Shown here: in pieces, positions 59,101-61,135 of the stretch | How positions within the stretch are numbered: the first letter of the stretch is position 1 | How the letters are laid out: every line of letters begins with the position of its first letter | DNA from: Viridothelium virens | Taxonomy: Eukaryota; Ascomycota; Dothideomycetes; Trypetheliales; Trypetheliaceae | Direction of reading: 5' to 3' | Assembly (NCBI GenBank): GCA_010094025.1 | Contig: ML991861.1 | Location: 32,874 to 96,873 of the forward strand | Length of the DNA: 64,000 bases | Program-made: the position numbers and the translations under genes | Notes under the pieces: model-generated | Databases searched by the model: none | What the model saw: the letters and a program-made list of their open reading frames with translations, nothing else | Told to the model about the DNA's origin: nothing

Positions 59101-61135
59101 AGAGCCGAAAGACTGAATAATGCGGTCGCACTTCTCGATAGTATGCTTGTAGACTGGATAGCATGCAGACAGTTCCCTCCCCATCGCGAACCATCGCGCA
59201 CCTTGGCCATTGAAAACAAAAACTAGCCGCGGTGGCCTCTCGAGCCTCTGTAGAGGCTGTACCGTACTGTCGCCAAGTGTCGAAGCGAGGTCTTCAGGTC
59301 CAGAGGCGCTCACAGCGATGGTCCAGGGAAAGCACGTTCGTCGTTCAGCTAAGGTGAAAGCCAGGTCTGAGAACGCAGATGGATGGAAAAATTTTGTCTC
59401 CAGACGACTCGAGATACTCCTTCAGGTTTGCCGCCATCTGCCGTGTAGCGCTCTTTGATGCGCACTGACTAAGAAAAGCTGTCGGGTCGGACGTTGGCTG
59501 TGAGCGCCGAGTGCTGCAGGTCCTAAAGGGGCTTCTTCCATGATCACATGCGTGTTTGTTCCCCCTTGGCGATGATCAGAGGTCGGTATTGGTGTTTTGG
59601 GACGAATGCCTCTTCAAACAGAGAAAAGGGCTGCAAAGAGAAAGAGGGACCTCTTAAAATCACTTACCATAGCCAAAGTCATTGATAGATGCCCGTCGGG
59701 GTCCGTTTGATGTCCATGGTTCGAGCTTCGTGGGTATCTGAATACTTGTGAGCCTATATACAATAAGGATATTTAAAGAGCAAAGTTACCGTTAATCCTA
59801 ATCCTCCCAAGCCAATCTCAGGATTTGCCTTCTCAAAATTCAAACTCGGCGGGATCTGCTGATTTTACAGCGCCAGGACCATCTTTATCACTGCTGCCAG
59901 CCCGGATGCAGCCTCTGTGTGGCCCAGATTCGTCTTGACGCTGGCTACATACAGAGGCTTCTTTCTTCCCCTTCCCATCGCCACGCCGATCGCTCGGGCC
60001 TCCGGCGGGTCACCAACTCTTGTTCCCGTGCCATGCGCTTCGACGACGGTCGTGCCTCGCGGATTCAGTCCTGCACAGGTGTAACAGGCCTCGATCAGAT
60101 CGCGCTGCGCATCAGAATCGGGGGCGGTGATGGTTGGGGTGCGCCCGTCTTGGTTCGAAGCTGTCTCGCGCACGACAGCACGGATCACGTCACCGTCACG
60201 GATAGCAGAAGATAAGCGCTTGATGATTATCGCAGCGATGCCGTCCCCACGGCCATACCCCTGTGCGCGCTCATCGAAAGCATAGCACTTGCCGTCGGGT
60301 CCAGAAGTTCTGGAATGGCCCAGTTAGGAAAGATATCAAGATACAAAAACCCACCCAGAATGAAGAGAAAGGGTCAGTTGAGTGAAAGGGGAGGAACGTA
60401 CTGCAGCGTTGATAAATTCACAAACGCGTCTGGGTTCAAATTGAGACATGCGCCTCCAACAATTGCACAGTCGGAGCCACCTCCCCTCAAGGTCTGCGCG
60501 ACAAAGTGCAAACCCATCAAGCTGGTGCTGCAGCCAGTATCCACGGCGACGGATGTGCCCTTCAAGTCAAAGAAATCCGATACACGATTTGCCAGCATAG
60601 CCGCGTAATTGCCTGTTACGAAGGCCCGTGACATATTCGATGGGTCACGCAGCTGTAGGTCATGATAGTCCTTGGTGAACGACCCTGTGAAGACGGCAGT
60701 ATTTGACCCTACGACAGAAGATAGCGGCAGTCCGGCAGACTCGAGCGCTTCGAATACTACCTCAAGCTGAATCCGGATCTGGGGGTCCATGGCTGCGGCC
60801 ACTTCGGCGGAGAGATTGAAAAAGGACGGGTCGAAAGCCCCAGGATCCTCACGGAGGAAGAAACCGCCCTTCAGGGATATGGTCGATAGACGGTCAGACT
60901 GCGGATGATAGAAGGCCTTCTGGTTGAAGCGCTCGGCAGGCACAGCAGACCACGCATCCCGCCCTTGTGAAAGGAGATCCCATAGTTTCTCTGGACTAGT
61001 AGCATCTCCGGAGAAGCGGCACGCCATGCCAATGATGGCAAGGGGTTCTTTTTTGGGGTCTGTGGTGCTACCGTCTTCATTGCGTCGAGCATCATGAGTT
61101 CCATTGGCTAAGGGTATGCTGCCAACAGCAGTCAT
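53135..61135 (-). pseudogene. Highly reducing type I polyketide synthase (KS-AT-DH-cMT-ER-KR-ACP), disrupted
   Basis: Six exons: 61135-60402, 60309-59790, 59737-59668, 59564-57964, 57908-54351 and 54298-53135; splice phases agree, footprint ~2,548 codons. Motifs by codon: KS Cys 202 in VDTGCSTSL, EAHGTGT and KTNLGHTEAASG; AT GHSSG (Ser 648) after FVFNGQGARW; DH HVVQG (~982) and HPMTLDAVFQ; cMT ILEIGAGTGG (~1441); ER HAAAGGVGQA (~1970); KR YLIVGGLGGIG (~2176); ACP GVDSLVAVELRN (~2498). No release domain is present. Lesions: codon 393 is TAA (59865-59867) where the family has Glu, just before NQQIPPSLNFEKANPEI. In the KS-AT linker, the family-like reading (SKSATRQMAANLKEYLES) is one frame off between about 59461 and 59380: an apparent 1-bp loss, later balanced by a CATC duplication. 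Without frameshift the same stretch holds TGA at 59422. As sequenced it would make only part of a KS. The intact enzyme would have made a reduced, C-methylated polyketide. Confidence 0.88.

What the first reader, a model, noticed from the sequence alone, without database searches (positions are those of the whole stretch)
59374..59867. PKS broken by one nonsense codon and two compensating indels
The frame runs KMVLAL, TAA, NQQIPPSLNFEKANPEI; homologues have Glu at the stop, so one G-to-T change (GAA to TAA) explains it. About 400 bp downstream, the expected KS-AT linker is found one frame away, bracketed by an apparent 1-bp loss and a CATC duplication that restores frame. All later domains keep their motifs, so decay is recent or the sequence has errors here.
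Basis: partly seen in the sequence, partly recalled or inferred. Interest (0 to 1): 0.7.

Follow-up and report, generated by a model that had tools for sequence, protein, structure and literature searches.

The report
Broken fungal polyketide synthase gene
A large fungal gene for building a small molecule carries an early stop signal and a scrambled stretch just behind it, so it most likely no longer makes a working enzyme; broken genes of this kind are well documented in fungi, and a local sequencing error has not been ruled out.

Summary
The window holds a fungal highly reducing polyketide synthase (HR-PKS) gene on the minus strand, ATG 61135 to stop 53135, domains KS-AT-DH-MT-ER-KR-ACP. The in-frame TAA at 59867-59865 is in the sequence; in that column 15 of 17 tested paralogues have Glu and 2 Gln. 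Behind them the linker changes frame twice with two of three references. The changes cancel in length, but a second stop (TGA, 59424-59422) lies between them, so they do not restore reading. The best splice-only model scores 187 against 300 and drops conserved residues. The same test on 17 paralogue regions found 0 stops and 0 frame changes. The rest of the gene shows no break. Best reading: a recently silenced PKS with a predicted product of 392 of about 2,548 residues. Against independent decay, the breaks lie within 323 coding bases (about 0.005 by chance, judged after the fact), so a local sequence error stays possible. Such losses are well documented in fungi. Ordinary; low interest.

The parts
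53135..61135 (-). HR-PKS gene, ATG 61135 to TAG 53135; six exons as modelled, 2548 codons with the breaks ignored
60402..61135 (-). exon 1: KS N-terminal part (PF00109, E 7.6e-58; DTGCSTSL motif)
60310..60401 (-). intron 1, 92 nt, GTACGT..TTCCAG, phase 2
59790..60309 (-). exon 2: KS C-terminal part (PF02801, profile 2-107 of 119 in the piece before the TAA)
59865..59867 (-). in-frame TAA, codon 393; 15 of 17 tested paralogues Glu, 2 of 17 Gln here
59738..59789 (-). intron 2, 52 nt, GTAACT..ATTCAG, phase 0; same column and phase in 4 of 17 paralogues (C24, C30, C1a, C85)
59668..59737 (-). exon 3: IPTKLEPW...RRASINDFGY
59565..59667 (-). intron 3, 103 nt, GTAAGT..GCCAAG, phase 1
59455..59517 (-). 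interval that holds the first frame change in the KS-AT linker (reference-dependent)
59422..59424 (-). second stop (TGA) met if the linker is read without a frame change
59378..59407 (-). interval that holds the second frame change, including the CATCCATC tandem at 59385-59378
57964..59421 (-). rest of linker and AT domain (PF00698, E 4.2e-46), open
57909..57963 (-). intron 4, 55 nt, GTAAGC..TCCTAG
54351..57908 (-). DH, MT and ER domains, one open exon, aligned end to end with paralogue C22 (37.6% identity)
54299..54350 (-). intron 5, 52 nt, GTGAGT..GCCAAG
53135..54298 (-). KR and ACP domains, open to TAG

Best explanation
A recently inactivated fungal HR-PKS gene. Shown in the sequence: the mRNA as modelled meets TAA at codon 393, inside the end of the KS domain, and the KS-AT linker behind it is broken again (a second stop or two frame changes). 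Inferred: translation ends with a 392-residue KS fragment that has no AT, ACP or reducing domains, so it cannot load or extend a chain; the message is probably degraded as nonsense-containing; the pathway that needs this PKS is off in this strain. The remaining exons still look sound because little time has passed since the loss.
For: TAA in a conserved column. No lesion-free splice model fits well: score 187 against 300 with C22 as reference, 176 against 280 with C48. The same test is clean in 17 of 17 paralogue regions, with loose introns and with GT-only introns of at most 120 nt. DNA search of the genome finds only the locus itself. No other break at the other exon junctions, and the DH-MT-ER exon aligns end to end with paralogue C22. 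AT deviates at 6 of 58 columns invariant in nine paralogues, against 0 to 7 when each of the nine is tested in turn, compatible with a young loss. Precedent: nonsense or frameshift variants in 23 of 33 A. fumigatus clusters (PMC5711037, passages seen) and truncated ascochitine PKS genes (PMC6763771, passages seen).
Against: All three breaks fall within 323 coding bases of 7644; three independent uniform hits would do so with probability about 0.005 (a test made after seeing the positions). That fits a local sequence fault, or one clustered event, better than independent decay. The two frame changes rest on two of three references; with C99 the model shows two stops and no frame change. No sister strain, reads or RNA were available.
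Confidence: 0.66

Rival explanations
1. Local sequencing or assembly error: the real gene is intact and the 0.5 kb between 59.37 and 59.87 kb is wrong in the draft.
For: Tight clustering of the breaks (about 0.005 by chance); the rest of the gene shows no break and AT conservation within the paralogue range; the start codon lies 2.9 kb from a contig end.
Against: 17 of 17 comparable regions elsewhere in the same assembly show no break. Only one copy found by DNA search, no N, GC 0.478, so not an obvious collapsed repeat. Of ten other window frames scanned with Pfam (a coarse check) two families, OPT and ABC1, pass from one frame to another; each place has a GT..AG intron that explains it (7092-7040 and, best scored, 16880-16813).
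Confidence: 0.29
2. The gene works: alternative introns remove the stop and the broken linker.
For: A frame-keeping GT..AG pair exists (59868-59754, 115 nt) that would remove the TAA, and lesion-free paths through the linker exist too.
Against: With C22 the model leaves 21 KS columns and 18 linker columns (15 and 3) unmatched, uses a GC donor in the linker and costs 113 score units; with C48 it uses a GC donor at the KS end and costs 104. The skipped DNA still reads as PKS protein like that of the paralogues, and intron 2 of the ordinary model shares its position with 4 of 17 paralogues.
Confidence: 0.04
3. RNA-level correction (A-to-I editing or read-through) makes the protein despite the stop.
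For: Editing of stop codons in fungal mRNAs is known (recalled, not searched).
Against: It would have to cope with the broken linker as well; nothing seen in the sequence points to it. Not tested.
Confidence: 0.01

Closest known systems
Inactivated secondary-metabolite genes in Aspergillus fumigatus (PMC5711037, passages seen)
   Same: Nonsense and short-indel frameshift variants in backbone genes, PKS included; several lesions can occur in one cluster
   Different: There shown across 66 strains; here one draft assembly and no second strain
Ascochitine PKS pksAC in Ascochyta lentis and relatives (PMC6763771, passages seen)
   Same: A fungal PKS gene largely complete but truncated by nonsense mutations
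   Different: Orthologues in sister taxa and transcripts known there, not here; product unknown here
LovB, lovastatin nonaketide synthase (PDB 7cpx), and psoA (9x2c)
   Same: Best solved relatives of the AT piece (E 3.2e-60 and 2e-61)
   Different: Both are solved proteins, the window gene is broken. For the KS piece the best solved match is 7zma, named only 'putative polyketide synthase', and LovB ranks lower

Membership tests
Fungal highly reducing type I PKS | KS-AT-DH-(MT)-ER-KR-ACP in one gene | tested here: met
   Pfam matches in order on the minus strand
Fungal highly reducing type I PKS | One continuous translatable frame after splicing | tested here: not met
   TAA 59867-59865; TGA or frame changes in the linker
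Pseudogene (unitary, by point lesions) | Truncating lesions in a frame intact in relatives, not explained by splicing | tested here: met
   paralogues only, no orthologue seen
Pseudogene (unitary, by point lesions) | Lesions present in the organism's DNA, not only in the draft | not testable with these tools
   No reads held
Pseudogene (unitary, by point lesions) | No functional transcript or product | not testable with these tools
   No RNA or metabolite data
Pseudogene (unitary, by point lesions) | Relaxed constraint in the rest of the gene | tested here: inconclusive
   AT deviates at 6 of 58 columns invariant in nine paralogues (paralogues 0 to 7); at the looser threshold 7 of 88 (paralogues 3 to 14)

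The most novel reading that the evidence does not exclude
The clustered lesions arose together in one local error-prone event (for example faulty repair of a break near the repeat-rich contig end), so that one event both stopped and scrambled the KS-AT hinge of an otherwise intact synthase.
Probability: 0.1. Interest if true: 0.3.

Novelty: new member of a known kind. Interest (0 to 1): 0.14.

Why it matters
If real, this strain probably cannot make the product of this synthase, and genome mining that counts it as working would be wrong. It is one more case of loss by small lesions in fungal secondary metabolism. If it is a draft error, it warns against calling a PKS dead from one assembly. 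It opens no new question.

Tried and rejected
Tried: spliced alignment with introns only; it exists but leaves conserved KS and linker columns unmatched and scores 113 (C22) or 104 (C48) lower. Search for a second copy that could give a chimeric or collapsed assembly: one match, the locus itself. RIP as cause: TpA/ApT 0.73 for the gene and 0.62 for the lesion region, against 0.67 for window 1-51000, 1.05 for the upstream TIR element, 1.2 for the AT-rich block and 1.62 for the contig end, so no sign of RIP in the gene. Solved relatives for the 25 residues behind the stop: one hit at E 1.2, uninformative. An AT conservation count was invalid because four minus-strand loci (C62, C73, C37, C28) were read on the wrong strand; it was redone. 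Paper searches: 37 papers hold at least 4 of 5 terms, 20 listed; passages of two were then read; lichen terms; listing only, nothing used; 3 papers, listing only, none used.

Limits of the control. By my count the genome has 36 other AT-bearing PKS loci; I fetched the 17 most like this gene. That they are HR-PKSs rests on this similarity; I did not scan their domains. The other 19 were not tested, and warns that its counts are lower bounds. Each region was aligned to one reference. In one search some GC-AG introns (C99, C24, C12, C30) look like artefacts of the poorly conserved linker, so one search repeated the test with GT-only introns of at most 120 nt (and gap opening -9 instead of -11). 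C24, whose linker is long, remains a weak control.

Not tried: scans of genome contigs and viral contigs, judged unlikely to hold a fungal orthologue; structure prediction. The species was not identified.

Full report
Setting. The window lies in an unnamed 30.7 Mb genome of 175 contigs (C91:32874-96873; the contig is 96873 long, so the window's right edge is the contig end). Spliceosomal introns, the fungal HR-PKS Pfam models (sdrA- and sdgA-type) and the best solved relatives of the AT piece, psoA and LovB, point to a filamentous fungus (inference). The species was not identified.

The gene. On the minus strand a highly reducing PKS runs from ATG 61135 to TAG 53135. Pfam places KS (PF00109, PF02801), AT (PF00698), DH (PF21089, PF14765), MT (PF08242), ER (PF00107, PF13602), KR (PF08659) and ACP (PF00550) in the usual order. 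Spliced alignment to paralogues gives five introns: 60401-60310, 59789-59738 and 59667-59565, 57963-57909 and 54350-54299. The modelled exons sum to 7644 nt, 2548 codons. An aldo-keto reductase frame (51238-52554) follows and covers 2-287 of 291 positions of its Pfam model.

The stop. TAA occupies 59867-59865 in frame with the conserved KS end. In 17 paralogues of the same genome the column holds Glu in 15 and Gln in 2. It truncates the product after 392 residues.

The linker. Intron 2 has the same column and phase as an intron in 4 of 17 paralogues (C24, C30, C1a, C85). Behind intron 3 the protein reads GGTNTHVIMEEAP...RQLFLVSA in one frame, TRQMAANLKEYLES in another, and HPSAFSDLAFTLAERRT in the first again. 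The middle piece matches the C22 and C48 linkers far beyond chance (44 against a shuffle mean of 4.6, SD 5.0; 0 of 5000 base shuffles reach it). References C22 and C48 both prefer two frame changes but place them differently. With C99 the preferred path has no frame change but a second stop, TGA 59424-59422. In either reading the linker is broken. The two changes cancel in length but not in effect.

Can splicing explain it? When stops and frame changes are forbidden the best model scores 187 against 300 (C22) or 176 against 280 (C48). The C22 model leaves 21 columns of the KS end and 18 of the linker unmatched. I reject it as the normal mRNA.

Control. The same alignment on the KS-AT junction of 17 paralogue regions gave 0 stops and 0 frame changes, with loose introns and with GT-only introns of at most 120 nt. 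None was dropped after fetching, but these are 17 of 36 other AT-bearing PKS loci that I count; the 19 less similar ones were not tested. C24, with a long divergent linker, is the weakest of the 17. The closest paralogues are about 41% identical over the AT piece, so no recent duplicate was seen, and a DNA search of the genome found only the locus itself. In the rest of the window, ten frames were scanned with Pfam. OPT and ABC1 pass from one frame to another there, and each place has a fitting GT..AG intron.

Real or error? For real: the clean controls, one copy, ordinary composition. For error: the three breaks span 323 coding bases of 7644, which three independent uniform events would do with probability about 0.005 (computed after the positions were known), and the rest of the gene shows no break. 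AT conservation does not decide: 6 of 58 invariant columns deviate, paralogues 0 to 7, with only C73 higher; at the looser threshold 7 of 88, paralogues 3 to 14. The CATCCATC tandem is weak evidence of slippage, since 26 comparable tandems occur in the gene. I put a genuine recent pseudogene at 0.66 and a local draft error at 0.29; these odds are judgement.

Known context. Passages of PMC5711037 report nonsense or frameshift variants in 23 of 33 A. fumigatus clusters, including a PKS frameshift shared by 19 strains. Passages of PMC6763771 report ascochitine PKS genes truncated by nonsense mutations in related Ascochyta. The present case, if real, is another of that kind.

Mechanism. Shown: truncation in the sequence. 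Inferred: a 392-residue KS fragment lacking AT and ACP is inactive, nonsense-mediated decay of the message is likely, and the pathway is off.

Noticed in passing
window 61430-61984: A 555-bp element with 54-nt terminal inverted repeats, 93% complementary, with TA near both outer ends by eye; related DNA on contig C154 at 77-86%. It looks like a non-autonomous TIR transposon about 300 bp upstream of the PKS start codon.
   Followed up: partly
window 63525-63773 and 63893-64000: Dispersed repeats; one search lists 70 matches to the whole 61350-64000 query, self included, most of them to these two stretches, and at least eight lie within a few hundred bases of other contig ends. Probably transposon ends that broke the assembly here.
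   Followed up: partly
window 62300-63600: AT-rich block, 30% GC against 51% in window 1-51000, TpA/ApT 1.2, between the PKS and the contig end; possibly RIP-affected repeat debris.
   Followed up: no
G000 contigs C12:14508-15263 and C115:29124-29864: Two of several further KS matches with stops inside (1 TGA; and TGA, TAG, TAA); introns or further broken PKS genes, not examined.
   Followed up: no
window 59214-59191 (minus strand): The AT entry motif reads FNGQGARW where the nine aligned paralogues have FTGQGAQW or FTGQGAQY.
   Followed up: no
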